Below are positions 1 through 10,657 of a stretch of DNA of 10,657 nucleotides, one piece after another (the stretch's first letter is position 1; every line of letters starts with the position of its first letter). This DNA is from Flavobacteriaceae bacterium (GTDB lineage: Bacteria; Bacteroidota; Bacteroidia; Flavobacteriales; Flavobacteriaceae), in NCBI GenBank assembly GCA_016763595.1, contig JAESTN010000134.1, positions 1 through 10,657 of the forward strand, read 5' to 3'. The notes under the pieces were generated by a model that worked only from the letters and a program-made list of their open reading frames with translations, did not search any database and was not told where the DNA came from. Both the position numbers and the translations under genes were made by a program.

Positions 1-480
1 AGACCCGATTTATTAGCCAACGATTTAAAAGAGGATTATGGTATAGAGCTTAAAGATTTATTGAATGTACGTACTTTTTTAGATCATAATCGTATTTGGG
101 AAGCTCCTAAAAAAGAAACAAATAACATAAGTCAATCTTCTGGAGCATATACCTATCAAGGTACGCGTATTCATAATAATTTGGTTGAAGATTCCCTCTT
201 TGAGCATTTACAAAAATGGAAACCTTATGTGGAACGTTTTGGACTATTAATGATCGAATTACATACGATTAATCCAAAACTCACTGCAAAAAACATTGGT
301 AAAACTGCAGCAACTGCGTATGATGCAACACATGGATATTCTGACCAATATATTTTAGAAGTTGATGTTTTTAATAAAGTAGCTGCAGCTTCTGGGTTGC
401 ATCCAGACCCAAACTATTTTACAAGGTTCCCTAATAACGAATTGGCTACGGTAAGTGTCAATTTATTAAAGGGCAAATAG
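1..480 (+). CDS. C-terminal part of a class I SAM-dependent methyltransferase-like protein (partial)
   Basis: The frame is open from base 1 to a TAG at 478-480, giving 159 residues of the C-terminal end of a longer protein; the start lies outside the window. An in-frame TTG at 61 is not a convincing start because coding sequence continues upstream of it. Recognisable segments are RTFLDHNR (about residue 24), a W-x-P-Y-V-x-R-x-G-L-L-x-I-E-L-H segment (about 73-89), AYDATHGYSDQY (about 106-117) and a final LHPDPNYFTRFP segment. From memory these resemble C-terminal parts of bacterial proteins annotated as polyketide-type or AprA-related SAM-dependent methyltransferases; the SAM-binding motifs would be in the missing N-terminal part. 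No signal peptide can be assessed. The gene lies outside the repeat-bounded units and probably marks the ordinary chromosome next to the array. The family call rests on pattern memory only; the coding call is firm. Confidence 0.6.
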   Translation, partial: RPDLLANDLKEDYGIELKDLLNVRTFLDHNRIWEAPKKETNNISQSSGAYTYQGTRIHNNLVEDSLFEHLQKWKPYVERFGLLMIELHTINPKLTAKNIGKTAATAYDATHGYSDQYILEVDVFNKVAAASGLHPDPNYFTRFPNNELATVSVNLLKGK

Positions 481-680
481 TAGTGAAAGAATGTGTTCAA
501 CAACTAGGAATAAAATTGTCAATAAATTATACTTTAGACACTTATTATTCTTGCTAACTTTATCATGCTAAGAAAATGAAGTTTCCTCTTTTTTAAAAAA
601 TTACCTTTTAAATTTTAACGAACCTTTTCTTGGGCTATAAATAAGGCAGCTAAACGAGAATTTTGAGCTTTATATATTCA
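481..680. other. Intergenic spacer upstream of the cassette array; possible insertion-site (attI-like) region
   Basis: These 200 bp hold no convincing ORF on either strand. The sequence is A+T rich. The stretch TAACTTTA near 555 matches the Bacteroidota -7 element TAnnTTTG at all but its last base, so it is a weak promoter candidate for the gene at 697. The spacer does not contain the palindromic repeat found after every later unit, although its last bases (TATATATTCA followed by GTT) faintly resemble the TATACAAACACGTT end of those repeats. If the downstream array is integron-like, this would be the primary insertion site or a secondary site. No integrase gene is visible here. Confidence 0.4.
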
Positions 681-694
681 GTTACAAACAATTC
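681..694 (+). other. Left boundary of the array: start of cassette 1, complementary to its own end
   Basis: GTTACAAACAATTC at this position is matched by GTTACAAATAGTTC, the reverse complement of 1332-1345, in 12 of 14 bases. The 3' copy directly precedes repeat A. The gene at 697-1332 is therefore bracketed by an inverted pair exactly where integron theory would put the two ends of one cassette. The sequence to the left shows no copy of the repeat, so this is where the array begins in the window. Confidence 0.55.
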
Positions 695-696
695 AA

Positions 697-1332
697 ATGA
701 AAAATAAAACACTAATAATAGTACTAATTTTACTGATTAGTTTCGCTACAAATGCTCAAAAAACAAAAACAGTTTTATATTATAAAAATGGTGATTCCAT
801 AGTCGGTTTTTCAAAAGGGGTTCATTACGATTTAATAAAATTCAGTAATGAGAAAAAAGGGAAATATCGAAAAAAAGATATTACGAATATTAAAAAAGTA
901 ATACTTTACTATAAAAATGGAAAGGAGGAATACCACCATTTATATGTTAAAAAGAGAAGAAAAGTGGAAGAGTTTTATTCAAGGTTAGTTCTAAAAGGAC
1001 CAATTAATTATTATATTTATTCAAGTCAATATACTCACAACTTCACTTCATTTAAAAATATAAACATAGGCAATGGAAAAACGCTAAATCAAGTGACTCA
1101 AGAGAGGTCTAATCATAATGTTAATATCATTTATTTAAAAAATAAAAAATCCAAACACGCAGTTTATATTTCTGATCTCTATTTCTCTTTATTTGGAGCA
1201 AAAATTTTCAGAAAAAATGCTGCTACGTTTTTTAATGATTGTCCGAAACTTGCGAAGAAAATAAAATCAAAAGAGTTAAAAAAACCTGACATTATAGAAA
1301 TAGTTGAGTTTTACAACAACAATTGTAACTAG
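697..1332 (+). CDS. Secreted hypothetical protein, 211 residues
   Basis: I do not recognise a family. The protein opens with a typical signal peptide: K-rich start, hydrophobic run LIIVLILLISFA, and likely cleavage after TNAQ at about residue 21. It should therefore be exported to the periplasm or beyond. The mature part is very basic, with many KKxK stretches. It has two related segments, VLYYKNGDSIVG (about 26-37) and VILYYKNGKEEY (about 68-79), suggesting a duplicated beta-hairpin unit. Two cysteines occur near the C-terminus (DCPKLAKK and the final NNNCN), possibly a disulfide in an oxidising compartment. The ATG at 697 is the only sensible start; it lies 16 bp after the cassette boundary with an A-rich leader and no Shine-Dalgarno sequence. 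The TAG stop ends 10 bp before the AAC of repeat A. It is the only gene of unit 1. Coding status is secure and function unknown. Confidence 0.8.
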   Translation: MKNKTLIIVLILLISFATNAQKTKTVLYYKNGDSIVGFSKGVHYDLIKFSNEKKGKYRKKDITNIKKVILYYKNGKEEYHHLYVKKRRKVEEFYSRLVLKGPINYYIYSSQYTHNFTSFKNINIGNGKTLNQVTQERSNHNVNIIYLKNKKSKHAVYISDLYFSLFGAKIFRKNAATFFNDCPKLAKKIKSKELKKPDIIEIVEFYNNNCN

Positions 1333-1342
1333 AACTATTTGT

Positions 1343-1468
1343 AACACCGTATAAAATTTATTGCGTGCAGAATTTCCTCCGCATAAATTCATGCGGATTA
1401 ATTGTCTTTTCGAAATTTCGGAAAGTACATCACACTTTTAACCGCAAAAAATGGTATACAAACACGTT
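1343..1468 (+). repeat. attC-like palindromic repeat A (126 bp)
   Basis: It begins AACACCGTATAAAATTTATTGC and ends AACCGCAAAAAATGGTATACAAACACGTT. The ends are imperfectly complementary: CGTATA and TTGC on the left pair with TATAC and GCAA on the right, with extra unpaired bases (the CAAACAC segment) on the right arm, as in attC sites. Inside is a perfect 7-bp hairpin, TCCGCAT (1378-1384), loop AAATTC, ATGCGGA (1391-1397), followed by the palindrome CGAAATTTCG. It closes unit 1; its last TT would already belong to unit 2. The right end closely resembles that of repeat B. Confidence 0.65.
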
Positions 1469-1548
1469 ACCTGTACCTAAAATATAGCATTCCAATTAAA
1501 AATATCAACGCCCTACATAATGGATATACTTCTTATCAAAAGAATTAA

Positions 1549-1556
1549 TATATTTG
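1549..1556 (+). promoter_or_regulatory. Candidate Bacteroidota -7 promoter element
   Basis: TATATTTG fits the flavobacterial -7 consensus TAnnTTTG exactly. The predicted transcript would start around 1562-1564, about 12 bases before the ATG at 1575. I see no clean TTTG -33 element about 20 bp upstream. This element also supplies the spurious in-frame TTG at 1554. It is the only exact match I found in a gene leader in this window, and would give unit 2 its own promoter. Confidence 0.4.
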
Positions 1557-1574
1557 TTAAAAAAAACTGCAATA

Positions 1575-4500
1575 ATGAAAAAACTATCTACAATAGTCTT
1601 ACTACTATTTGGGCTAATAACTCCTGCTACATATGGGCAATCATTTATTAAAAACTTCACTTCAATTAGTGAATTAATAGAAGTAAACGACCAATCATTT
1701 TTTAGCGTTAATAATCGTAAAGAACTTTGGAAAACAAAAGGGACGAAGGAAACTACATTTTTAGTTAAAGATATTAACGCTATAGGTAACAGTAGCATAA
1801 AAAATCTGACTTCATTTAATGATGAATTATATTTTTCTGCTAATGATGGTTTTTTTGGAGAAGAGCTATGGAAAACAGATGGTACGGAAGCAGGAACTGT
1901 ATTGGTTAAAAATATTCAAAAAGCATTTGGACAAGGCTCTAATCCTAGTAACTTTACCATTTATAATAATGAACTTTATTTTACTGCAACCGATCATTTT
2001 ACTAGTGGAAGTTTTCAATTATGGAAAACTGATGGTACTGAGGGAGGGACAATAAAAGTTTATGATGCAGGCGGTATCAATATTTCAGATTTATTAACTG
2101 TAAACAATAAATTATACTTCAAGCTTAAGTATGGCCCTAATAAATTAATGTCCTTTGATATAACCAACGGAGTTAATGAAGTTCTAATAGATGAATATTA
2201 CTCCATCAATCAGTTAAATTCTTTTAACAATAGTTTATATTTCATTACCAATACTTCCAACAAACAAAACATAAGAATTTATAAACTTAATAATACAGGG
2301 AGTCCAATATTACTTCAAGAATTTACACAGCCTCAATATGGAAGCATCGACATTCATAATTTCACTTTAGTAGGTACCGATATCTATTTTTCAATTACAA
2401 CTGACTTTAATTCAGGGGATGATTCAGACATACTTTGGAAATCGAACGGTACAAATGCTGGAACCTCAATAGTTAAGAGTTTCAATTGGAACAGACATTT
2501 ATCAGGTTCTAATATCTCAAACTTTGTTGAATACAAAAACGAGCTTTATTTTAACTCTGGAAGCCAAAATAATTATACACTATGGGAATCAGATGGTTTC
2601 ACAACAGGAACAGTTGAAGTAGTAAATATTAGTATTGATAAAACTGTTAAATTTCAAATACTAAAGGATGTATTATATTTTTCTAACGCAAATAAACTTT
2701 GGTCAACCGATGGCACCAGTGTAAACACAAAAAAAAATTCTGACCTTACAATTACCAATAAAAACTCTGATGACCTATTTAATGTAAAAAGTACAACAAA
2801 CACACTGTTTTTCGAAGGGGATCATCAATCAATAAAGGGATTATATACCACTGCATTAAATCCATTGATTGAGGTTAAAAAAGGGAATTCTGTAATTAAA
2901 GTTAAAAGTGTAGTTTCTTTTGAATCGAAAATTGATAGTGTTGTTAGAAGTATTATAAAAATTAAAAATATTGGAAATAAAGACCTCATTTTTTCAAAAA
3001 TCAAGATTGTTGGTCAAAACTTTTATATTGATGGTAAACAGTCAAATAATATCAATAATCAAAATCAAAATGGAGATTTTTCACAAATATTAGAACCAGG
3101 CTCTCAATCAGAATTTGAATTATCTTTTTATCCAAGTTCTAAAGGGATGAAAAAAGGAACTTTAAGTATTTTTAGTAATGATCTTGGAACACCTAATTTT
3201 AATATAGAATTAAGTGGTTATGCAGAGGATGAAATTGGTCAAGATTTAAATAAAAATTTAAGCTTAAATAAAGAGATTAATTTTGACTCATCAATTTTTT
3301 CAATTAAATTAAGTACTAATTCAATACAGGAAGATAGACCAATTAATTCTGTTGTTGGAACATTAAGCATACTTAATAGCAATGATGGTTTTACATATAC
3401 ATTAAGTAATGTAGATGGAAATTTAGACAATCAACATTTCTCTATTGTAAACAATGAATTAAAAACAAGTTCTAATTTTAACTTTGAACAAAAAAACACG
3501 TATGTATTAAACGTCAGTGCAGTAAATAATTCAACAAACAAAACAATTGAAGAACGGCTTATTATAAGTATTTCAGATGTTCATGAAGAACTGGTTTTAG
3601 AAGCGTGTTCTTTAGAAGTTAATAATTTAGGATTTGGCTTAAATGATGTAGAATTTATAGACAATCAAAATGTTATTGCTGTAGGAAGTCATGGTGTTAT
3701 CTTAAAATCTTATGATGGCGGTAATACATGGAGAAAAATACGACATGATCCGTTAAATCACTTAAATAAAGTTCAATTTACATCAAATACAGTTGGATAT
3801 GCTATTGGGAATAACGTATTAAAAACAGAAGATGCAGGTGAGTCTTGGTTTACTTTAACACTACCAGACGTTTCCTACCCGATTCCTACCAATTTGTTCT
3901 TTGTTAATTCAAATGTCGGTTTTGTTTTTGGAAATGACGGCAAATTTTTTAAAACTTCAAATGGAGGTAAATATTGGACTAAAAAAAATATTGGTTATGG
4001 CGACTTTAATTCAGCATTTTTCTTTAACGAATCAGACGGGTACATAGTCGGTAATTCCAAAACTATATACAAAACATTTGACGGAGGCGATACATTGGAG
4101 TTTATAGATTTAAAAATTAGTGAATTAAATTCTAGTACAAAATTAACAAACATTTATTTTGTCAGTAACCTAATTGGATACATTTCTGGGAATAAAGGAG
4201 AAATAATAAAAACAATAGATGGAGGTAATACTTGGACATTGGTCTCAAAAATTGAATATAATGCAAAGATTAACAATCTAGTTTTTAAAGGTGAAAATAT
4301 TGGTTACGCCCTTACAGAAGGTGCATTATATAAAACTACTGACGGAGGGATTACTTGGTCTAATGAAAATTTAGAATATTTCTATAGCGGTTTTCAAAGT
4401 GTTGGTTTTAATAATGATGGTAGTAAGAGTTGTTTAGTTGGTCATGGCACTACCTGTTGCACAGGATATAGTACTGGTCATATTATATATACAAAAGAAT

Positions 4501-6122
4501 TAGAGAATAGTTGGGGTAACAAATCATACCTTTCATTAAGATCTTACCCTCTAAATGCCATACACATAGAAGATGAAGGCATTGGGTTCGTATTTGGAAA
4601 TAACTATGCGGCAAAAACAATAGATGGAGGTCTAACATGGAAAAATTTAGACCCGCCCGAGTCTTATATAACCCAAGTTAAAGTTCTTAACAACACTGTT
4701 TATTTACTTGGTCAAAATAACATATATAAAAGTACAGACTCCGGAGAAACATGGGGCGCAATAAGTACACCTATTAGTTTTAAAAAACTCTTCTTTATAA
4801 ATGAACAAATTATTTATGCTTTAACTTCAGAATCCGGAATTTTTAAGACTACAGATGGTGGTGTAAATTGGACGCAAACAAGTAATAACCCATCAAATGG
4901 CCTAAATATATTTTTTCTAAACGAAAATGAAGGTTTTATTGCAGGAATAGAAGGGCTTTACAAGACTGTAGACGGTGGCAACACATGGGTTAATACACAT
5001 ATAGAACCAATGCTCAATACGGAAAGTACAATCGTTCATACAATCCATTTTCTCAATAAAGATCTCGGAATAGCAGGTAGTTCAACTGGATTGTTAAAAA
5101 CGGTAGATGGTGGTGATAACTGGACGCGATTAAACAAGAATATGGGAGGAATTGTTAAATTCATTAGAGCTATAAATGAGTTTGAATGGCTTGCAATTAC
5201 TGATTATAGGGTTCTCAAAACAAGTGATGGAGGAATAAACTGGACAACTATATATTATGATCAAGAAATAAATGATGTTTATTTTTCTGATAAAAAAACA
5301 TACTTAGCAGGTTACAAAAATTTAACAGAAATCACGACTAAAAGCCAACCTAGAAGCCCTGGTATTATTCAAGGAAACCAAATTATATCATCTCAATCGA
5401 TAGAAGAATACAGTGTAAATAACGACGTGAATGTTCATTATAAATGGACAGTATCTGGTGATAATAAAATTTCATATACTGAAAACAAGGCTGAAATATT
5501 GTGGAAATCTCCAGGAATTTATACAGTTAGCGTAACACCTTTTGATAACTGTGGAAGTGGTATTGCCAAAGAGATAATAGTAACAGTAGAAGAAGATTGG
5601 GATGCACCAGTCATTTCTGGTGAAACTGAGATAATTGAATTTTCTTTAAACAATGAATATTTCACACCTTTAACTAATTCTTCAAGGTATAAATGGACTG
5701 TAAAAGGTCATACTGAATATAATAAAACGGCCAATAATGTATCCATTAATTGGGGTGAACTTGGAAATGGGAGAATTGAAGTCATTGAGACCAAAATAAA
5801 TTCAGGAAAAAGAAAAAAAGGATATCTAGATGTTGTAATTAACTCAGCAGCATTGTCTCTTGATGATTTTAATCTAGAAAAAAAGGCCATAAATGCCTTT
5901 CCTAACCCTACACATGGTGTTTTTGATATTGCACTACCAACAACCTCTTTTAAAAAGGTTAAAATAACGGTGTTTTCAACAAATTCTCAAAAGATATCAA
6001 CGCAAATGTATCCAGTTATTAATGGCAACGTTAGGTTAAATATTAAGCATTTCCCAACAGGAATGTATTATATAAAAGTACATATAGAAGTTCCAAGATC
6101 ACTTAAAATCATAAAAATTTAA
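1575..6122 (+). CDS. Very large secreted multidomain beta-propeller protein with T9SS type A sorting domain, 1515 residues
   Basis: The protein is exported by Sec and then by the type IX secretion system to the cell surface or medium. In order it has: a signal peptide (1-22, ending ATYGQ); six ELWKTDGT-type repeats (about 50-389), a beta-propeller-like pattern common in Bacteroidota surface proteins; an ASPM/SPD-2/Hydin-like Ig domain ('choice-of-anchor D' type, about 430-550); a cadherin-like domain (about 582-670); twelve Asp-box / YCF48-like units with K-T/S-x-D-G-G-x-x-W motifs (about 711-1225); two PKD-like domains containing YKWTV (about 1258-1338 and 1343-1422); and a T9SS type A sorting domain (about 1433-1515) with AFPNPTHGVFDI, FPTGMYYIKV and terminal KIIKI. 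ATG 1575 is preferred over TTG 1554 because it starts the signal peptide and the TTG lies in the promoter-like element. No catalytic motif is evident; adhesion or ligand binding is inferred. It is followed 11 bp later by a beta-barrel gene. Confidence 0.9.
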   Translation: MKKLSTIVLLLFGLITPATYGQSFIKNFTSISELIEVNDQSFFSVNNRKELWKTKGTKETTFLVKDINAIGNSSIKNLTSFNDELYFSANDGFFGEELWKTDGTEAGTVLVKNIQKAFGQGSNPSNFTIYNNELYFTATDHFTSGSFQLWKTDGTEGGTIKVYDAGGINISDLLTVNNKLYFKLKYGPNKLMSFDITNGVNEVLIDEYYSINQLNSFNNSLYFITNTSNKQNIRIYKLNNTGSPILLQEFTQPQYGSIDIHNFTLVGTDIYFSITTDFNSGDDSDILWKSNGTNAGTSIVKSFNWNRHLSGSNISNFVEYKNELYFNSGSQNNYTLWESDGFTTGTVEVVNISIDKTVKFQILKDVLYFSNANKLWSTDGTSVNTKKNSDLTITNKNSDDLFNVKSTTNTLFFEGDHQSIKGLYTTALNPLIEVKKGNSVIKVKSVVSFESKIDSVVRSIIKIKNIGNKDLIFSKIKIVGQNFYIDGKQSNNINNQNQNGDFSQILEPGSQSEFELSFYPSSKGMKKGTLSIFSNDLGTPNFNIELSGYAEDEIGQDLNKNLSLNKEINFDSSIFSIKLSTNSIQEDRPINSVVGTLSILNSNDGFTYTLSNVDGNLDNQHFSIVNNELKTSSNFNFEQKNTYVLNVSAVNNSTNKTIEERLIISISDVHEELVLEACSLEVNNLGFGLNDVEFIDNQNVIAVGSHGVILKSYDGGNTWRKIRHDPLNHLNKVQFTSNTVGYAIGNNVLKTEDAGESWFTLTLPDVSYPIPTNLFFVNSNVGFVFGNDGKFFKTSNGGKYWTKKNIGYGDFNSAFFFNESDGYIVGNSKTIYKTFDGGDTLEFIDLKISELNSSTKLTNIYFVSNLIGYISGNKGEIIKTIDGGNTWTLVSKIEYNAKINNLVFKGENIGYALTEGALYKTTDGGITWSNENLEYFYSGFQSVGFNNDGSKSCLVGHGTTCCTGYSTGHIIYTKELENSWGNKSYLSLRSYPLNAIHIEDEGIGFVFGNNYAAKTIDGGLTWKNLDPPESYITQVKVLNNTVYLLGQNNIYKSTDSGETWGAISTPISFKKLFFINEQIIYALTSESGIFKTTDGGVNWTQTSNNPSNGLNIFFLNENEGFIAGIEGLYKTVDGGNTWVNTHIEPMLNTESTIVHTIHFLNKDLGIAGSSTGLLKTVDGGDNWTRLNKNMGGIVKFIRAINEFEWLAITDYRVLKTSDGGINWTTIYYDQEINDVYFSDKKTYLAGYKNLTEITTKSQPRSPGIIQGNQIISSQSIEEYSVNNDVNVHYKWTVSGDNKISYTENKAEILWKSPGIYTVSVTPFDNCGSGIAKEIIVTVEEDWDAPVISGETEIIEFSLNNEYFTPLTNSSRYKWTVKGHTEYNKTANNVSINWGELGNGRIEVIETKINSGKRKKGYLDVVINSAALSLDDFNLEKKAINAFPNPTHGVFDIALPTTSFKKVKITVFSTNSQKISTQMYPVINGNVRLNIKHFPTGMYYIKVHIEVPRSLKIIKI
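1722..2740 (+). repeat. Protein-level repeat block: six ELWKTDGT-type units
   Basis: Inside the large gene the motif recurs as ELWKTKGTKETTFLVKDI, ELWKTDGTEAGTVLVKNI, QLWKTDGTEGGTIKVYDA, ILWKSNGTNAGTSIVKSF, TLWESDGFTTGTVEVVNI and KLWSTDGTSVNT. Most are followed or preceded by an NELYF / NxLYF strand. A degenerate unit (LMSFDITNGVNEVLI) sits between the third and fourth. The regular spacing suggests blades of one beta-propeller. Confidence 0.8.
3705..5250 (+). repeat. Protein-level repeat block: twelve Asp-box (BNR/YCF48-like) units
   Basis: The units read KSYDGGNTW, KTEDAGESW, KTSNGGKYW, KTFDGGDTL, KTIDGGNTW, KTTDGGITW, KTIDGGLTW, KSTDSGETW, KTTDGGVNW, KTVDGGNTW, KTVDGGDNW and KTSDGGINW. The fourth lacks the Trp and the third replaces Asp by Asn. 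Most are preceded by a GxxxG...ILKT-like strand, the pattern of YCF48/sortilin-type propellers. Twelve units would suit two propellers of about six or seven blades. Confidence 0.85.
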
Positions 6123-6133
6123 TTTAGAATGTA

Positions 6134-6661
6134 ATGAGAAAAATCAAGAATTCTATATTTATTATTTTTTACCTGTTAACGATCACTCAGTCATTTTCAC
6201 AAGATAAATATTCAATTCGTATCGATTTTACTAAAGTTTTTTTTGGAGCTTATCAAATTGGAGGAGAATACAATCTAAACGAAAATATATCTCTTGGATT
6301 AGAGTTCATTGACTTTAAAGCTTCTAGAACTTTAACTTCTAAAACAGACGCCGAATCAAGAGATAAAGTATTAGCGGTAAGTCCATTTATTAGATATTAC
6401 AGAAAGAACAATCATTCTTCTACATCATTTTATCAAGGTAGTTTTCGCTATTTGAATTACGTAGGTTTAGGAGATCAATATGATACATGGAGAAATCTCT
6501 TGAGTATAGATATTGTTTATGGATATCAATTTAAAATTAGTAACATCTTTTATATCGAACCAAGTATTGGTTTAGGAGTATATAAAAAACTAAATGCAGA
6601 CAAAAAAACAGCTATTTCCCCTTATCCCATTCTTAACTTTAACCTAACTATAAGGCCCTAA
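6134..6661 (+). CDS. Small predicted outer-membrane beta-barrel protein, 175 residues
   Basis: The N-terminus is a signal peptide with hydrophobic core IFIIFYLLTI and likely cleavage after SFSQ at about residue 23. The mature part alternates short amphipathic strands: YSIRIDFTKVFFGAYQIGGEY, ISLGLEFIDF, LAVSPFIRYY, FYQGSFRYLNYVG, LLSIDIVYGYQF, FYIEPSIGLGVYK and PILNFNLTIRP. These end in aromatic or glycine residues, as in small 8-strand outer-membrane barrels; the closing strand contains IEPSIGLGVY, seen in many Bacteroidota barrels. I cannot name a specific family. The start is 11 bp after the stop of the giant T9SS protein, so the two are almost certainly one transcript and were probably acquired together. 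The barrel could help anchor or assemble its partner, but that is inference. The stop at 6659-6661 lies 16 bp before repeat B. Confidence 0.75.
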   Translation: MRKIKNSIFIIFYLLTITQSFSQDKYSIRIDFTKVFFGAYQIGGEYNLNENISLGLEFIDFKASRTLTSKTDAESRDKVLAVSPFIRYYRKNNHSSTSFYQGSFRYLNYVGLGDQYDTWRNLLSIDIVYGYQFKISNIFYIEPSIGLGVYKKLNADKKTAISPYPILNFNLTIRP

Positions 6662-6677
6662 AAAGATAACGACAGGC

Positions 6678-6877
6678 AACAACGTGTATAATTAATTGCT
6701 TCATTTTAGATGAATTAAAAATTTAGTTTTAAATTGAACTTACAAAAAGACAATGAAGCATTCGATACATCAATTTTAATACACTCGAAGTATTTTAACT
6801 CAATACGGCTGTGGCTTGGCTCGCTGATATGGTGGTTTTAAAATTTTGAACCGCAAAAAATCATATACAAACACATT
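6678..6877 (+). repeat. attC-like palindromic repeat B (200 bp, longest copy)
   Basis: It starts AACAACGTGTATAATTAATTGC and ends GAACCGCAAAAAATCATATACAAACACATT. The arms pair as GTGTATA/TATACAAACAC and ATTAATTGC/GCAAAAAAT, with extra bases on the right arm. An inner perfect 9-bp inverted repeat, TGCTTCATT (6697-6705) with AATGAAGCA (6752-6760), makes it about 75 bp longer than A, D and E. The terminal triplet is ATT instead of GTT. It closes unit 2, and the bases before it (ACAGGCAAC) are nearly complementary to the start of unit 2. Confidence 0.6.
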
Positions 6878-6898
6878 AGGTACAATTAGAGTAAACCA

Positions 6899-7618
6899 AT
6901 GAAAATCCCAAAAATAAAAGGAATAATAGATCGAAGAATTTTAATCAACTATCAAGTTGATAAAGAAGTTTTGGAAAGTTATTTACCAAAACCTTTTAAA
7001 CCAAAATTGGTAAACGGAAAAGGAATTGCTGGAATTTGCTTAATTCGATTAAAAGAAATTAGACCGAAAGGATTCCCTAAACAAATTGGGATATCTTCAG
7101 AAAACGGAGCGCACAGAATTGCTGTAGTGTGGACTGAAAATGGAAAACTGAAAGAAGGAGTTTATATTCCACGAAGAGATACTTCTTCAACATTAAATTC
7201 TTTAGCCGGAGGAACTATATTTCCAGGAATTCATCATTTAGCCGAATTTACAGTAAATGAAAAAGAAAAAAATTATGAAGTAGGTTTTATAAGTGACGAC
7301 AATACGTCTTTGTTTATTAAGGCAAAAGAAACTGATATTTGGAATAAAGAAAGTGTTTTTGAAAATCTTGAATGTGTCTCAAACTTCTTTAAAGATGGCT
7401 CAATTGGATATTCACCTCACAAAAATAATTTTGATGGACTTGAATTGAAATCTTATAACTGGAAAGTATCACTTTTAGAAGTTGAAAATGTAAAATCAAG
7501 CTTTTTTGAAAATGAAGGTGTTTTTCCAAAAGGTTCTGTAAAGTTTGATAATGCTTTATTAATGAAAAATATTGAACACGAATGGATTGGATTAAAAACA
7601 ATAAAAAACGGTACCTAA
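6899..7618 (+). CDS. DUF2071 family protein (acetoacetate decarboxylase-like fold), 239 residues
   Basis: The sequence has the look of the DUF2071/YqjF family: an opening INYQVDKEVLESYLPKPFKPKLVNGKGIAG segment in which the protein is 'anchored' by a L-P-x-x-F-x-P stretch (about 25-36), then CLIRLKEIRPKGFP (about 47-60), SENGAHRIAVVW (about 67-78), GVYIPRRDTSS (about 87-97) and a C-terminal VKFDNALLMKNIEHEW segment. Family members adopt an acetoacetate decarboxylase-like fold, but substrate and reaction are not established, and I cannot point to a catalytic lysine. No signal peptide or membrane segment is seen, so it should be cytoplasmic. The length, about 240, is normal for the family. The ATG at 6899 is 24 bp after the boundary in repeat B, with no Shine-Dalgarno sequence. 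Its TAA stop lies inside the ACCTAAC box that begins repeat C, as often happens in integron cassettes. It is the sole gene of unit 3. Confidence 0.75.
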   Translation: MKIPKIKGIIDRRILINYQVDKEVLESYLPKPFKPKLVNGKGIAGICLIRLKEIRPKGFPKQIGISSENGAHRIAVVWTENGKLKEGVYIPRRDTSSTLNSLAGGTIFPGIHHLAEFTVNEKEKNYEVGFISDDNTSLFIKAKETDIWNKESVFENLECVSNFFKDGSIGYSPHKNNFDGLELKSYNWKVSLLEVENVKSSFFENEGVFPKGSVKFDNALLMKNIEHEWIGLKTIKNGT

Positions 7619-7717
7619 CGCCGTAAAAGATTAATTGCTAGTACTCTTTTACTTACCAAAATCCTGTCGGATTTTCTATTCGGTTTGTATTTACTAAATT
7701 AGGTGTTCAAACACGCT
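7617..7717 (+). repeat. attC-like palindromic repeat C (101 bp, shortest copy)
   Basis: It begins AACGCCGTAAAAGATTAATTGC and ends GGTGTTCAAACACGCT. Most of it folds into one long imperfect stem: TAATTGCTAGTA, TAC and ACC on the left against GGT, GTA and TACTAAATTA on the right, capped by the perfect hairpin AAAATCC-TGTC-GGATTTT. The preceding GGTACCT with AAC gives ACCTAAC, fitting the integron R'' consensus RYYYAAC. The terminal triplet is GCT, not GTT. It closes unit 3. Confidence 0.6.
7658..7675 (+). terminator. Possible intrinsic terminator within repeat C
   Basis: A perfect 7-bp stem with a TGTC loop ends in a TTTT run that forms part of the stem itself and is followed by CTATT. It could end transcription of the DUF2071 gene, but it is A+T rich and equally explained as the apex of the attC-like fold. 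Confidence 0.25.
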
Positions 7718-7750
7718 ACGAAATCATACACAACCACATCACCCACAATT

Positions 7751-8884
7751 ATGAAAAAGATCCTTCTTACAGTATCAATTTGCCTTTTGAGTTTAAGTAA
7801 CTATGCCCAAGAACAAATTATAACCGAACTGAAAAACGAGTACGAAAAGGAGAAGTACGATTTAATTATTTCTAAGCATTCTGAAAAGGTAAGTGAATAT
7901 CCAGCCAAAGCAATTTATTATGTTGGAATGGCTTATTATATGAAGGCTGACGACAATAACGTACTTAAAATCATGGATTTGTCAATAAAAAAAGACAAGA
8001 CTGACCCAGACGCATTTTTCATTAAGGGAATGACTTTAAATTATATGGGCAAATTCGACAAAGCAATTGAATCTTTTAATAAAGCAATCGAACTTGATTC
8101 AAGTAACTCAAATTATTATAGTGGATTGGGAGATTCTTATGTAAGCCAAGAAAAATATGAAAAAGCACTATCTGCTTACAAGACAGCTACAGAAAAAAAC
8201 GAGCTAATAGACAGACCTTTTACTATGATTCCTCAAATCTATGCCGAACTTAATCAGCCCAAAAAGGCTTTAGAAGCATTTTATAAATCAAAAGCAACTA
8301 TCTCAAAAGAATCTAATTCCTATGTAAATGCACTTTATAACATTGGTCTATACGAATTGCTGAACAAAAACTACGACGAATCAGAAATTGCATTTAAAGA
8401 GTTGATTGAATTAGCACCTAATGACTTTCATTCTTATGCCAAATTAATTCAAGTCTATTACGGAAAAAAAGAATACAAAAAAGCAAAACCTCTTAGAGAA
8501 AACCTTTATAAAGCTTATAAAAAAGGAAAATTAAAAGACAATCTAAAAAGTATGTTTTGTTTTGACCAATTCAAATGGAAAGACAAACTTATACTGGTAT
8601 ACGAACGATTTGCTGTTAAAAAAGGTGAATTATATTACAAACATATATTTTATGTTCAAAATAAAACAGGAGAAACTGAATTTACAATTCAAACTGAAAA
8701 CTCTCCTATTTCTGAGGAATTAGGCACCGGGAAATACGCCATTGGAATGGATAAAAATGGAGCTCATTCTACATTTGGATTTATTAAAGAGAATTTTAAA
8801 TATGATTCTTTAAAAAGTATTATTCATAAAATTCTTGAAAAACAATTAAATGCAATAACAAGCTCAAGGAAAGGGAAAATTTAA
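7751..8884 (+). CDS. Secreted tetratricopeptide-repeat protein, 377 residues
   Basis: The protein starts MKKILLTVSICLLSLSNYAQ, a clear signal peptide cleaved after YAQ at about residue 20. Residues about 50-250 are helical TPR units: the best is AFFIKGMTLNYMGKFDKAIE with SFNKAIELDSSN, followed by YSGLGDSYVSQEKYEKALSAYKTA, a weaker AELNQPKKALEAFYKS unit, and ALYNIGLYELLNKNYDESEIAFKEL with IELAPND. TPRs are protein-binding scaffolds. The last 110 residues, from about CFDQFKWKDKLILVYERF, look like a separate alpha/beta domain with a LYYKHIFYV strand; I do not recognise it. Upstream in-frame GTG (7703) is rejected because it lies inside repeat C and would put a polar 16-residue tail before the signal peptide. 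The ATG is 36 bp after the boundary, the sole gene of unit 4. Location is periplasmic or surface; function unknown. Confidence 0.85.
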   Translation: MKKILLTVSICLLSLSNYAQEQIITELKNEYEKEKYDLIISKHSEKVSEYPAKAIYYVGMAYYMKADDNNVLKIMDLSIKKDKTDPDAFFIKGMTLNYMGKFDKAIESFNKAIELDSSNSNYYSGLGDSYVSQEKYEKALSAYKTATEKNELIDRPFTMIPQIYAELNQPKKALEAFYKSKATISKESNSYVNALYNIGLYELLNKNYDESEIAFKELIELAPNDFHSYAKLIQVYYGKKEYKKAKPLRENLYKAYKKGKLKDNLKSMFCFDQFKWKDKLILVYERFAVKKGELYYKHIFYVQNKTGETEFTIQTENSPISEELGTGKYAIGMDKNGAHSTFGFIKENFKYDSLKSIIHKILEKQLNAITSSRKGKI

Positions 8885-8892
8885 CTGTTGGT

Positions 8893-9015
8893 AACACCAT
8901 ATATAATTAATTACTTATGAATTTCCCAAACAGAAATTCACGCGAATTAATTACCTTTCCGCATTTGTAAGAAGTAGATAGCGCTTTTAACCTACAAATC
9001 TTATTCAAACACGTT
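8893..9015 (+). repeat. attC-like palindromic repeat D (123 bp)
   Basis: It starts AACACCATATATAATTAATTAC and ends TTTTAACCTACAAATCTTATTCAAACACGTT. An inner perfect hairpin joins TGAATTTC (8918-8925) and GAAATTCA (8933-8940). A second inverted pair is ATTTGTA near 8964 with TACAAAT near 8993. AATTAATTAC occurs twice within the repeat. It is about 94% identical to repeat E; the first 73 bases are the same and all changes fall in the last 50. It closes unit 4. Confidence 0.65.
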
Positions 9016-9030
9016 GGCAACTAACAAGAA

Positions 9031-9042
9031 ATGAATAAATGA
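9031..9042 (+). promoter_or_regulatory. Three-codon leader ORF overlapping the lipoprotein start
   Basis: ATGAATAAATGA encodes Met-Asn-Lys and stops with a TGA that overlaps the ATG of the next gene. Such an overlap can couple translation. In an A+T-rich leader it may also be chance. Confidence 0.25.
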
Positions 9043-9473
9043 GAAAAATAATAACAGGATTGAGTATTCTCTTAATAACGTTTTTAGGCTGTAAAAAAGC
9101 GAACAGGCATTTTGACAAAGATGGAAACGAATTTATCAAAAAAGGAAACGAAGTTTTTGTAATCCCTGCTAAATACACTAAAACAGGAAAATCATATAAA
9201 GTATTTATTTACAATGAAACTTCTAGCGAAATTAGGGTTATTGAAAACCTGAAAATAAATCCTAATCAGTTTAAAGTTTTTAATTTAAAAGATACTGATA
9301 CGCTTAAATTAGATAATGGAGTGGAATTTATGTTCGGAGAAACTTATGGACTTCAAATTGAGGATAAAAAATCACAAGTTAGTGGTCTAGGCGGGAGGTT
9401 TTTAGATGAATATGGAGTTCCCGACGAGGCTGTATGGGCTTTTGTAATAGTCCCCCCAGAAAAAGGAGATTGA
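9039..9473 (+). CDS. Small predicted lipoprotein, 144 residues
   Basis: The N-terminus MRKIITGLSILLITFLGC is a lipoprotein signal: a hydrophobic stretch ending FLGC with the acylated cysteine at residue 18, followed by KK. Bacteroidota lipoproteins with this type of box are usually anchored in the inner or outer membrane. A DKDGNEFIKKGNEVFVIP segment follows, then a beta-rich domain including SYKVFIYNETSSEIRVIENL, LKLDNGVEFMFGETYGLQI and a final AVWAFVIVPPEKGD. I do not recognise a family. The ATG at 9039 is 26 bp after the boundary in repeat D and overlaps the stop of a three-codon leader ORF. A 42-bp gap containing a candidate repeat remnant separates it from the next gene, so the two now share one unit. 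Coding status is good; the function is unknown. Confidence 0.75.
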   Translation: MRKIITGLSILLITFLGCKKANRHFDKDGNEFIKKGNEVFVIPAKYTKTGKSYKVFIYNETSSEIRVIENLKINPNQFKVFNLKDTDTLKLDNGVEFMFGETYGLQIEDKKSQVSGLGGRFLDEYGVPDEAVWAFVIVPPEKGD

Positions 9474-9484
9474 TAAAAAACAGC

Positions 9485-9510
9485 AGTTGCCGTGACCATT
9501 AGCAAACATT
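9485..9510 (+). other. Candidate remnant of a deleted attC-like site
   Basis: AGTTGCC at 9485-9491 is the exact reverse complement of GGCAACT, which follows the start of this unit at 9016. GCAAACATT at 9502-9510 resembles the CAAACACGTT end of the full repeats, and CGTG between them resembles part of the left box. The simplest reading is that the lipoprotein once had its own terminal repeat, which was reduced to 26 bp, joining it to the following gene. The element is short and the reading is inferential. Confidence 0.35.
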
Positions 9511-9515
9511 AAAAA

Positions 9516-9881
9516 ATGAAATCGAAATACCAAGCACCACCAGATTTTGAACATAAAAGTAATCTTAAATTGTTGAAATCGGAAAACGAATTTGACAAAA
9601 TTAATGGACTTCTATCAATTGTTCTTAAAAGTGGTAATTACGATTTATCAATGAAAAAATCCATTGAATTCTCTCAAAAAAACTCAGAATGGGTAAAGGC
9701 CTGTGGAATTGAATGTTTCGGGCACATAGCCCGACTTTATAAAAAAATTGAACTGGATTCTGTTCAGGGAGTTATCACTGACGGACTGAAAAGCAAAAGT
9801 AAAATTATTTCTGGAAAGTCAGAGTCTGCAATTGATGACATTGTTCACTTCCTAAAATTAGATAGAGAATTATTTGAATAA
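9516..9881 (+). CDS. Small HEAT-like helical protein, immunity-protein-like, 121 residues
   Basis: No signal peptide or membrane segment is present, so the product should be cytoplasmic. The chain appears all-helical. SEWVKACGIECFGHIARLYKKIELDSVQGVITDGLKSKSKIISGKSESAIDDIVHFL is the distinctive region (about 56-115, described here by its pieces: WVKACGIECFGHIAR, then IELDSVQGVI, then GKSESAIDDI). From memory this arrangement resembles small HEAT-like proteins in bacterial polymorphic-toxin loci, where they act as immunity proteins, but I cannot assign a family and no toxin gene adjoins it. The ATG at 9516 follows an A-run; the start is 42 bp after the lipoprotein stop. The TAA stop is 11 bp before repeat E. 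It is the second gene of unit 5, perhaps through fusion of two cassettes. Coding is likely; the immunity role is a guess. Confidence 0.7.
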   Translation: MKSKYQAPPDFEHKSNLKLLKSENEFDKINGLLSIVLKSGNYDLSMKKSIEFSQKNSEWVKACGIECFGHIARLYKKIELDSVQGVITDGLKSKSKIISGKSESAIDDIVHFLKLDRELFE

Positions 9882-9892
9882 AAACTGGCTAC

Positions 9893-10016
9893 AACACCAT
9901 ATATAATTAATTACTTATGAATTTCCCAAACAGAAATTCACGCGAATTAATTACCTTTCCGCATTGGTAAGAAGCAGACAGTACTTTTAACCTCACAAAT
10001 CTTATACAAACACGTT
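9893..10016 (+). repeat. attC-like palindromic repeat E (124 bp)
   Basis: Nearly the same sequence as repeat D, with 6 substitutions and one inserted C, all in the last 50 bp. Its hairpin arms are TGAATTTC (9918-9925) and GAAATTCA (9933-9940). It ends TATACAAACACGTT, restoring the TATAC box that is TATTC in D. It closes unit 5; the GTT is followed by ATAAGTAAAA, the start of unit 6. Confidence 0.65.
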
Positions 10017-10040
10017 ATAAGTAAAAAACATTATTAATAA

Positions 10041-10657
10041 ATGAAAGAACATCTTACTATTTTAATTGATGACAAGAACATTGATTTATGGAATGAATTA
10101 AATGAAATATATGCAATTGAATTAATTGCAAGTTCAGAACAAAATTATAGTTCTAAAGTTTCAGGCAATAGTGCAACCATTAGCATTTATGAAAATGACC
10201 TTAGTGCTACTTCTTTTACACATCAATTAATTCACCTTTACTTGAAATCAAAAAACGTGAAAATCGTAGAAGATTTCTATAATGCTTTGGAAAAGGCTAA
10301 GGAAATTAATAGTCTTTTTTCAGATGGTCTAAAAGAGCATGTAACGTATTGTCTCGAACTTGAATTAATGCTTCCAATATTTTTAAAAATGGGGTATGAA
10401 AATCGACTTTTAACAAGTGATTTTAATGAACCTAAAATGAATAAAAAAATGCTAGACATTCTCTTGAAAAGATACAAGAACAAAGGTGTTTATGATAGAG
10501 AAGCTGTAGATTTTTTTATCGGTACATTCTTCGCGATGAAGTCTTGTAATAATATGGCATTTAAGTATCATAAATACTTCATCGCTTTTCAAGAATTAGA
10601 CAAAGAATTGTATACCTTATTATCAGAGTTTTGGTTAGATTGGAAAACCTATGATAT
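10041..10657 (+). CDS. Hypothetical protein with degenerate HExxH-like motif (partial, 3' end outside window)
   Basis: An ATG at 10041, 27 bp after the boundary in repeat E, opens a frame that reaches the right edge without a stop, giving at least 205 residues. The start MKEHLTILIDDKNIDLWNEL has no signal peptide, suggesting a cytoplasmic protein. At about residues 58-68 is SFTHQLIHLYL, which has the shape of HExxH metallopeptidase-like helices (as in HELLHxYL) but with Gln in place of the catalytic Glu, so it is probably not an active protease. The rest looks helical: FYNALEKAKEINSLF, HVTYCLELELMLPIFLKMG and ALDILLKR-type segments, then a Cys-containing FFAMKSCNNMAFKYHKYF. The reverse-strand frame at 10277-10483 is its shadow. 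It is the first gene of unit 6. I do not recognise the family beyond this motif; the repeat that should end the unit would be outside the window. Confidence 0.75.
   Translation, partial: MKEHLTILIDDKNIDLWNELNEIYAIELIASSEQNYSSKVSGNSATISIYENDLSATSFTHQLIHLYLKSKNVKIVEDFYNALEKAKEINSLFSDGLKEHVTYCLELELMLPIFLKMGYENRLLTSDFNEPKMNKKMLDILLKRYKNKGVYDREAVDFFIGTFFAMKSCNNMAFKYHKYFIAFQELDKELYTLLSEFWLDWKTYD

What the first reader, a model, noticed from the sequence alone, without database searches (positions are those of the whole stretch)
681..10657. Integron-like gene-cassette array in a flavobacterial genome, with unit-specific terminal complementarity
Five palindromic repeats in one orientation each close a unit of one or two same-strand genes. 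Shared ends are AAC plus a CCGTATAA-like box on the left and the invariant CAAACAC followed by GTT/ATT/GCT on the right. The start of each unit is complementary to the bases before the repeat closing the same unit (12/14 in unit 1; GTTACCTGT vs GTTGCCTGT in unit 2; 8/9 in unit 3; partial in unit 4). This is the known signature of attC sites reassembled from circular cassettes. It is not explained by simple repeat copying or by terminators. Integrons in Bacteroidota are, to my knowledge, poorly described, and these sites deviate from the GTTRRRY rule.
Basis: partly seen in the sequence, partly recalled or inferred. Interest (0 to 1): 0.85.

Follow-up and report, generated by a model that had tools for sequence, protein, structure and literature searches.

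The report
Flavobacterial integron with unusual integrase
Flavobacteria carry long rows of movable gene cassettes that look and appear to work like integrons, but they are headed by a different recombinase that lacks the part regarded as the hallmark of integron integrases.

Summary
The window is a same-strand cassette array. Relatives show where such arrays start: directly downstream of a ~390-aa tyrosine recombinase, behind a conserved attI-like site (ATATAACCA|GTT).

Around 80 recombinase genes, 126 sites lie downstream on the recombinase strand, 2 downstream on the other and 0 upstream. Each unit's two ends match: mean 5.79 of 7 complementary bases over 117 units, 2.64 when shuffled (repeated). 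The same cassette recurs behind attI and behind different attC-like sites, changing exactly at GTT. One relative's array spans about 110 kb.

The surprise is the enzyme: XerA-like, with an extra N-terminal domain and without the IntI insertion (58-59 residues between two catalytic boxes, 100 in 19 of 19 canonical IntI). A conserved A.C (top) or T.G (bottom) position marks the R stem. Canonical IntI turned up in no genome of the window's family in a 395-genome phylum sample. Ten literature searches listed no description.

Recombination itself is inferred, not shown.

The parts
1..480 (+). 3' end of a host gene upstream of the array (Methyltransf_36, AprA MT2-like domain); no recombinase in the 680 bases available upstream
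   Evidence: Pfam PF23525, 195 bits; patchy in the genus, 23 of 116 genomes
669..683 (+). attI-like head of the array, TATATATTCA|GTT, where the first cassette begins; resembles the genome's own attI, TATATAACCA|GTT
   Evidence: sequence; compare the attI-like motifs
681..1342 (+). cassette 1; gene 697-1332; start GTT-ACAAACA-ATT, end complement ACAAATA (6/7)
1343..1468 (+). attC-like site 1 (AAC ... GTT)
   Evidence: R1 match, 70.2 bits
1466..6677 (+). cassette 2, two genes: 1575-6122 (ELWxxDGT and Ycf48-type repeats, secretion tail) and 6134-6661 (DUF3575); ends 5/7
6678..6877 (+). attC-like site 2, the 200-nt class; a site of the same class follows the first cassette behind the genome's recombinase
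   Evidence: only its two ends match R1, weakly (E 0.057 and 0.0026)
6875..7616 (+). cassette 3; gene 6899-7618 (DUF2071); ends 6/7
7617..7740 (+). attC-like site 3; right end corrected to ATC at 7738-7740
   Evidence: R1 match 7617-7738, 84.4 bits
7738..8892 (+). cassette 4; gene 7751-8884 (TPR protein); ends 6/7
8893..9015 (+). attC-like site 4
   Evidence: R1 match, 64.3 bits
9013..9491 (+). cassette 5a; gene 9039-9473; end complement exact (7/7)
9485..9510 (+). relict of a deleted site between cassettes 5a and 5b: AGTTGCC / GTGACC / ATT-AGCAAAC-ATT
   Evidence: the reading as a deletion relict is inference
9498..9892 (+). cassette 5b; gene 9516-9881; ends do not match (0/7)
9893..10016 (+). 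attC-like site 5, 95% identical to site 4 over 101 nt
   Evidence: R1 match, 60.5 bits
10014..10657 (+). cassette 6, cut by the contig end; gene 10041 onward

Best explanation
The window is one array of an integron-type system. A unit is a cassette: one or two genes followed by an attC-like site. An excised circular cassette joins its two ends, so that R'' (AAC preceded by 7 unit-specific bases and usually a C) and R' (GTT, 7 matching bases, then usually ATT) form one long stem. The stem has an asymmetric internal loop of 3 against 6 nt and then a covarying L stem. The bottom strand, where the conserved position-8 pair is T.G and not A.C, is the likely substrate. [quoted passage not shown] Arrays thus grow at the head and also seed secondary arrays such as this one. 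Shown by comparison: anatomy, end matching, linkage, breakpoints and absence of the IntI insertion. Inferred: circles, single-strand folding, strand choice, and that this recombinase does the exchange.
For: End complementarity belongs to the unit: 5.79/7 over 117 units, shuffle 2.64; repeated in 77 units of named relatives, 5.88 against 2.52.
Linkage: 126 sites downstream on the same strand, 2 downstream opposite, 0 upstream; 436,231 bases upstream and 248,606 downstream searched in 80 loci.
attI-like motif in 71 of 80 loci by a loose rule, 55 of the 71 at 23-42 nt after the stop codon.
Own genome: recombinase, attI, cassette starting GTT-ACCTGTA-ATT and ending TACAGGT-AAC (7/7), then a site of the 200-nt class seen in the window.
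Mobility: 21 of 21 attI/attC pairs with the same cassette start but unlike left sides part at GTT; they come from 7 attI, and 19 of the 21 lie within one locus, 2 between two genomes (L097/L103). 42 further pairs of attC-like sites share a cassette start with an unlike left neighbour. In 52 of 54 pairs of similar attI, from 37 loci, the next 40 nt are under 60% identical.
L-stem covariation: 5.35/6 against 4.16 in 113 sites and 5.22/6 against 4.27 in 170, with GTATAA, GTATAT, GTGTAT and GGCTAT versions.
Bottom strand folds more stably in 90 of 93 rejoined sites.
Scale: 61 sites, all on one strand, downstream of one recombinase in G016.
Against: No recombination assay was run, and none on this system was found. 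In the own genome the recombinase (contig C139) and the window (C43) are on different contigs of a 57%-complete MAG. Eighteen of 117 units score 3 or less, and window unit 5b scores 0/7. Of 47 loci with more than 1,500 b downstream, 10 show no site to the profile at E 0.01. RNAalifold found no consensus structure on the top strand. The strand difference in folding energy has no shuffle control, and the bottom strand is G/T-rich. The attI/attC breakpoint rule asked for C before GTT in attC-like sites, which favours a break at that base when attI has A there.
Confidence: 0.88

Rival explanations
1. These are ordinary integron cassettes with attC sites, moved by a canonical IntI with the additional domain that acts in trans or was lost from this assembly.
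For: Sites have the attC plan (AAC...GTT). Canonical IntI passes its cut-off in 105 of 395 genomes of the phylum.
Against: No match over the IntI cut-off in 59 genomes: the own, 35 of its genus and 23 of its order, although 109 of 110 good genomes of the genus hold sites. In the phylum sample 104 of the 105 lie outside the window's class and none in its family. Sites sit behind another recombinase with its own attI.
Confidence: 0.05
2. The recombinase works on double-stranded sites as Xer does. The unit-specific end complementarity is a by-product, for example of how units formed, and no single-strand folding is involved.
For: The enzyme is XerA-like and lacks the domain that handles folded attC in IntI.
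Against: Seven variable bases kept complementary across units of up to several kb, plus L-stem covariation across the hairpin, have no evident use in a duplex. Position 8 is kept as A.C on top and T.G on the bottom strand.
Confidence: 0.1
3. Transposon-like units or MITEs with short inverted ends, or spreading terminator-like repeats, unrelated to cassette capture.
For: Ends are inverted repeats, and some units recur many times in one array (L103, L101).
Against: Inverted ends of transposons are shared between copies (general knowledge), here they differ from unit to unit. Sites are nearly all in one orientation behind one recombinase with an attI-like site.
Confidence: 0.02

Closest known systems
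Integrons (IntI / attI / attC), including sedentary chromosomal integrons
   Same: Integrase, adjacent attI and same-strand cassette array; sites with AAC at the left and GTT at the right; exchange point at G|TT; matching ends that can extend beyond the 7-nt R boxes (PMC2727003: 9-11 nt; passages read); arrays of dozens of cassettes.
   Different: The integrase lacks the IntI insertion and scores 198 and 206 bits against a cut-off of 265 on TIGR02249. It has an extra N-terminal domain of about 95 aa. The 7 bases after GTT are largely free (GTTRRRY not kept). The internal loop is 3/6. A fixed T.G / A.C position follows the 7 bases.
Treponema chromosomal integrons
   Same: Integrase transcribed toward attI in the direction of the cassettes, not divergent from them (PMC3607928, passages read).
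   Different: Treponema belongs to the intI family; its sites were not compared here.
Archaeal XerA and bacterial XerC/XerD recombinases
   Different: Extra N-terminal domain, a separate clade from the own genome's XerC/D, and association with attI and cassette arrays. NF040815 (recomb_XerA_Arch) stays just below its cut-off of 220 at 208.7 and 217.6 bits.
CALIN (clusters of attC lacking an integrase)
   Same: The window array has no recombinase in the 680 bases available upstream of it.
   Different: Defined for canonical attC; here the presumed enzyme is the XerA-like one elsewhere in the genome.

Membership tests
Integron | Integrase with the IntI-specific additional (I2) domain | tested here: not met
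   Residues between the K-D-R box and HxLRH: 58-59 in the 11 of 16 flavobacterial and the 8 more distant recombinases in which both boxes were found, 100 in 19 of 19 canonical IntI (a 20th locus gave no segment), 62 and 66 in XerC/D. The PDB alignment to IntI4 splits there. TIGR02249 below cut-off.
Integron | attI site beside the integrase gene, where cassettes enter | tested here: met
   Loose motif rule in 71 of 80 loci (L126, L137 and L141 look wrong by eye, and L143, L180, L185 and L189 carry the motif by eye but failed the rule). Sequence turnover begins at GTT in 52 of 54 similar pairs.
Integron | Cassettes ending in an imperfect palindrome with paired R''/R' and L''/L' boxes | tested here: met
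   R pairing; L pairing 5.35/6 and 5.22/6 against 4.16 and 4.27 shuffled.
Integron | Same-strand array of cassettes | tested here: met
   61 of 61 and 55 of 55 sites on one strand in two relatives; 76 of 79 ORFs on that strand in the G016 stretches scanned.
Integron | GTTRRRY core of the R' box | tested here: not met
   Base 1 after GTT is R in 115 of 117, base 2 in 50 of 117, base 3 in 52 of 117. PMC2727003 gives only AAC and GTT as conserved, so this is a weak criterion.
Integron | Extrahelical bases on the R''-L'' arm | tested here: inconclusive
   Best of 30 offsets is 3 unpaired nt on the R''-L'' side and 6 on the L'-R' side (4.58 of 5 paired; 4 and 7 gives 4.47), so the surplus is on the other arm; no structure is solved.
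Integron | Cassette exchange with breakpoints at G|TT | tested here: met
   by comparison within arrays and between loci, not between strains.
Integron | Integrase recombines the bottom strand of attC with attI | not testable with these tools
   Needs an assay; folding favours the bottom strand in 90 of 93.
Integron | Cassette promoter Pc | not tested
   -
XerA-type recombinase (NF040815) | Score over the curated cut-off (220) | tested here: not met
   208.7 and 217.6 bits for the two proteins scanned, just below.

The most novel reading that the evidence does not exclude
A second class of integron that arose from a XerA-like recombinase independently of IntI. It handles folded single-strand sites without the I2 domain, with strand choice set by the conserved T.G pair and the 3/6 loop. 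It reaches well beyond the window's family: recombinase relatives in families f22, f27, f32 and f49 of the phylum stand before the same attI plan, with site sequences unlike those of the window.
Probability: 0.5. Interest if true: 0.95.

Novelty: new variant of a known kind. Interest (0 to 1): 0.86.

Why it matters
The IntI-specific extra domain is treated as a defining trait of integron integrases (PMC9668308, passages), and PMC4792948 (passages) describes a chicken-and-egg problem: how could the I2 domain and attC sites evolve before each other? A natural, widespread system with attC-like cassettes and no I2 domain makes that question testable. It also suggests that Bacteroidota genomes hold large cassette arrays that IntI-based searches miss: the IntegronFinder 2.0 paper reports one complete integron in Bacteroidetes proper (PMC9024848, passages), while here 141 of 146 genomes of one genus hold sites and 80 of 249 genomes of the family hold the recombinase at E 1e-100. 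Cargo of one array includes DNA methylases and a restriction enzyme among 88 Pfam families.

Tried and rejected
Rfam: nothing relevant in the window (one match at E 2.5, below its gathering score). An RNAalifold consensus on the top strand gave no pair, so model R1 is sequence-only. With two mismatches allowed, the end motif is hardly above its backward control in the own genome (89 against 63 matches); the matches with at most one mismatch served as the main leads, and one of these contigs (C240) showed no site on reading. Sites in phage records: no match with one site as query. Plasmids: 4 records. Plasmid and phage tblastn with the recombinase gave only relatives under 60% identity (the plasmid search hit its 5,000-record limit). 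An empty-site comparison at the window's own locus was dropped because relatives of the upstream gene are only 59-65% identical. The structure model has pTM 0.47, so its domain arrangement is not used. The N-terminal domain was not predicted alone, and VIA-align rows cover mainly residues 96-368, so whether its fold is known stays open. The tree has long branches between the groups, so no order of origin is claimed. The L-stem count used sites partly chosen by stem pairing; the count without that choice is.

Print status rests on ten paper searches, open-access PMC only and no preprints; for most papers I saw the listing alone. Against novelty in the wide sense: PMC2426708 (passages) reports intI genes in the Bacteroidetes/Chlorobi group, and PMC9892861 (passages) reports attC sites, one of two tested active with IntI1 by its figure legend, in a Polaribacter phage. 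PMC8352920 (passages) models attC of 11 taxa; its main text does not contain 'Bacteroid' or 'Flavobacteri'.
Full report
WHAT IS IN THE WINDOW. The window is contig C43 of a 57%-complete genome of 2.2 Mb in 422 contigs. It carries a same-strand array of five repeats that close units of one or two genes. A host gene (Methyltransf_36) ends at 480, and the array begins at 681 behind TATATATTCA|GTT. Two details of the finding needed correction: the right end of site 3 lies at 7738-7740, not at 7717, and unit 5 is two cassettes whose separating site is deleted to a relict at 9485-9510. With these corrections five of six complete units match their own ends at 5 to 7 of 7 bases. Unit 5b matches at 0 of 7 and stays unexplained; sites 4 and 5 that flank this stretch are 95% identical, so later exchange between them is possible.

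MORE THAN CHANCE. A pattern search found the site's end motif with at most one mismatch 25 times on 11 contigs, among them a 12.9-kb contig that is almost all array (L045). In 117 distinct units, from the window, 20 contigs of its genome and 20 stretches of relatives, the seven bases after GTT are complementary to the seven bases before the AAC that closes the same unit: mean 5.79 of 7, 64 perfect, 18 with 3 or less; 2,000 shuffles gave 2.64 with sd 0.13. The two ends that meet in one array site agree only at 3.03 (140 sites). So the match is a property of the unit, as expected if its ends meet in a circle. In named relatives 77 units gave 5.88, 63 of them 6 or more, against 2.52. That set shares at least two genomes with the first (inferred from equal contig lengths), so it is a near-independent repeat.

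ANATOMY OF THE SITE. A cassette usually starts GTT-N7-ATT and ends C-N7-AAC. Position 8 after GTT is A in 116 of 117; on the other side the bottom-strand base is G in 100 of 117. In the named set it is A in 118 of the 119 starts with a base there, and C (top strand) in 101 of 120 ends. A hairpin of the top strand would have A opposite C there, one of the bottom strand T opposite G. Next comes a loop of 3 nt on the left and 6 on the right (best of 30 offsets), then a stem that covaries: GTATAA, GTATAT, GTGTAT and GGCTAT versions, 5.35 of 6 paired against 4.16 shuffled. Of 93 sites rejoined with their own unit start, 90 fold more stably as bottom strand (mean -25.8 against -21.1 kcal/mol, DNA parameters) and 78 fold more stably than the same site as found in the array. 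There was no shuffle control for the strand difference.

THE RECOMBINASE. The integron-integrase family model matches in 58 of 59 genomes of the own genus and order, always below its cut-off, and also in all 14 control genomes, so a match alone says little. The best-scoring of these matches, including one in the own genome, come from recombinases of about 350-416 aa. The own-genome copy is at C139:2507-3703. Its contig reads: a gene that looks like an aminotransferase (by eye, not searched), recombinase, attI (TATATAACCA|GTT), one cassette that starts GTT-ACCTGTA-ATT and ends TACAGGT-AAC, and a site of the 200-nt class that also closes window unit 2. A scan of one genome per species gave 273 relatives, of which the best 80 were kept: Tenacibaculum, Polaribacter, Lutibacter, Algibacter, Bizionia, Winogradskyella and others. 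In these, 126 sites lie downstream on the recombinase strand, 2 downstream on the other strand and none upstream; 42 of 80 loci show a downstream site, and 37 of the 47 with more than 1,500 bases of room. The other 10 show none to this profile. attI-like motifs follow in 71 of 80, 55 of these at 23-42 nt from the stop codon (a loose rule, with a few errors both ways).

MOVEMENT. Sixty-four pairs of junctions share a cassette start with unlike left neighbours; 21 of them pair an attI with an attC-like site, and identity stops at GTT in 21 of 21. The 21 come from 7 attI; 19 are repeats of a cassette within one locus and 2 join two genomes (L097, L103). In 54 pairs of loci with similar attI (37 loci), 52 have sequence under 60% identical after GTT. 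One relative (G016) has 61 sites on one strand from 2,169,083 to 2,278,795, with one gap of 20 kb, downstream of its recombinase, and none in the 20 kb before it; another (G060) has 55 in 80 kb, all on one strand. In G016, 76 of 79 ORFs of the array stretches scanned are on that strand (the stretch L287 was not scanned). Cargo, as scanned in 73 of those 79 proteins: 88 Pfam families, of which 25 were shown, among them DNA methylases (2 proteins), a HaeIII-type endonuclease, beta-lactamase-fold and acetyltransferase domains.

DISTRIBUTION. Sites: 141 of 146 genomes of the genus, 109 of 110 good ones. Recombinase at E <= 1e-100: 80 of 249 genomes of the family, 75 of 235 genera. Canonical IntI over its cut-off: 0 of 59 genomes of the own genus and order; 105 of 395 in the phylum, one in the window's class (G203), none in its family. 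More distant relatives of the recombinase in other families also stand before GTT-N7-AT starts. In 8 of the 13 loci tested, 6 of the 9 outside the window's family, an exact complement of the first cassette's start followed by AAC lies within 9 kb downstream; three more have one mismatch (L269, L273, L284). The sites there have other sequences but the same AAC...GTT plan.

HOW IT PROBABLY WORKS. Shown by comparison: modular units, matched ends, a fixed attI-like place, turnover at G|TT, linkage to one recombinase family. Inferred: circular cassettes, folding of the bottom strand, exchange with attI by this recombinase, and seeding of secondary arrays such as the window's at attI-like places. 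The absence of the I2 domain means that strand choice and resolution must be achieved otherwise; the T.G position and the uneven loop are candidates.

KNOWN OR NEW. Integrons are reported for Bacteroidota (PMC8618304, PMC9668308; passages; intI in the Bacteroidetes/Chlorobi group in PMC2426708, passages), with a single complete one in Bacteroidetes proper, Salinibacter ruber, in PMC9024848 (passages). Same-direction integrase genes are known from Treponema (PMC3607928, passages). Extended R pairing and bottom-strand use are known for attC (PMC2727003, passages). The I2 domain is described as not identified outside integrases (PMC4792948, passages). Ten searches of open papers listed no account of this system. 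Databases give at least four of the 120 members listed a generic name that includes 'integron integrase'; a XerA family model bears that same name, so the naming is not evidence.

Noticed in passing
L103 (G013), L101 (G009), L127: The same cassette start recurs several times in one array, behind attI and behind different attC-like sites.
   Followed up: partly
phylum sample: Canonical IntI passes its cut-off in 105 of 395 genomes of the phylum, 104 of them outside the window's class; some genomes (e.g. G262, G321, G448, G467) also hold a relative of the XerA-like recombinase.
   Followed up: no
CP116296.1 and CP116298.1: Sites about 77% identical to one of the window's genome lie on two Tenacibaculum finnmarkense plasmids, so cassettes may move between replicons (inference).
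   Followed up: no
window 1466-6677: A 5.2-kb cassette with a 1,515-aa repeat protein (ELWxxDGT and Ycf48-type repeats, secretion tail), which seems large for a cassette.
   Followed up: partly
window 9498-10016: Unit 5b has non-matching ends (0/7) and its closing site is 95% identical to the preceding site; exchange between sites may have swapped an end.
   Followed up: no
G016 array (L094, L095, L285, L286, L288): Cassettes carry DNA methylases, a HaeIII-type restriction enzyme, beta-lactamase-fold and erythromycin-esterase-family domains by Pfam; function not tested.
   Followed up: partly
contig ends in L112-L191: 33 of 80 recombinase loci hold 1,500 b or less downstream, as if repeats break the assemblies there.
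   Followed up: no
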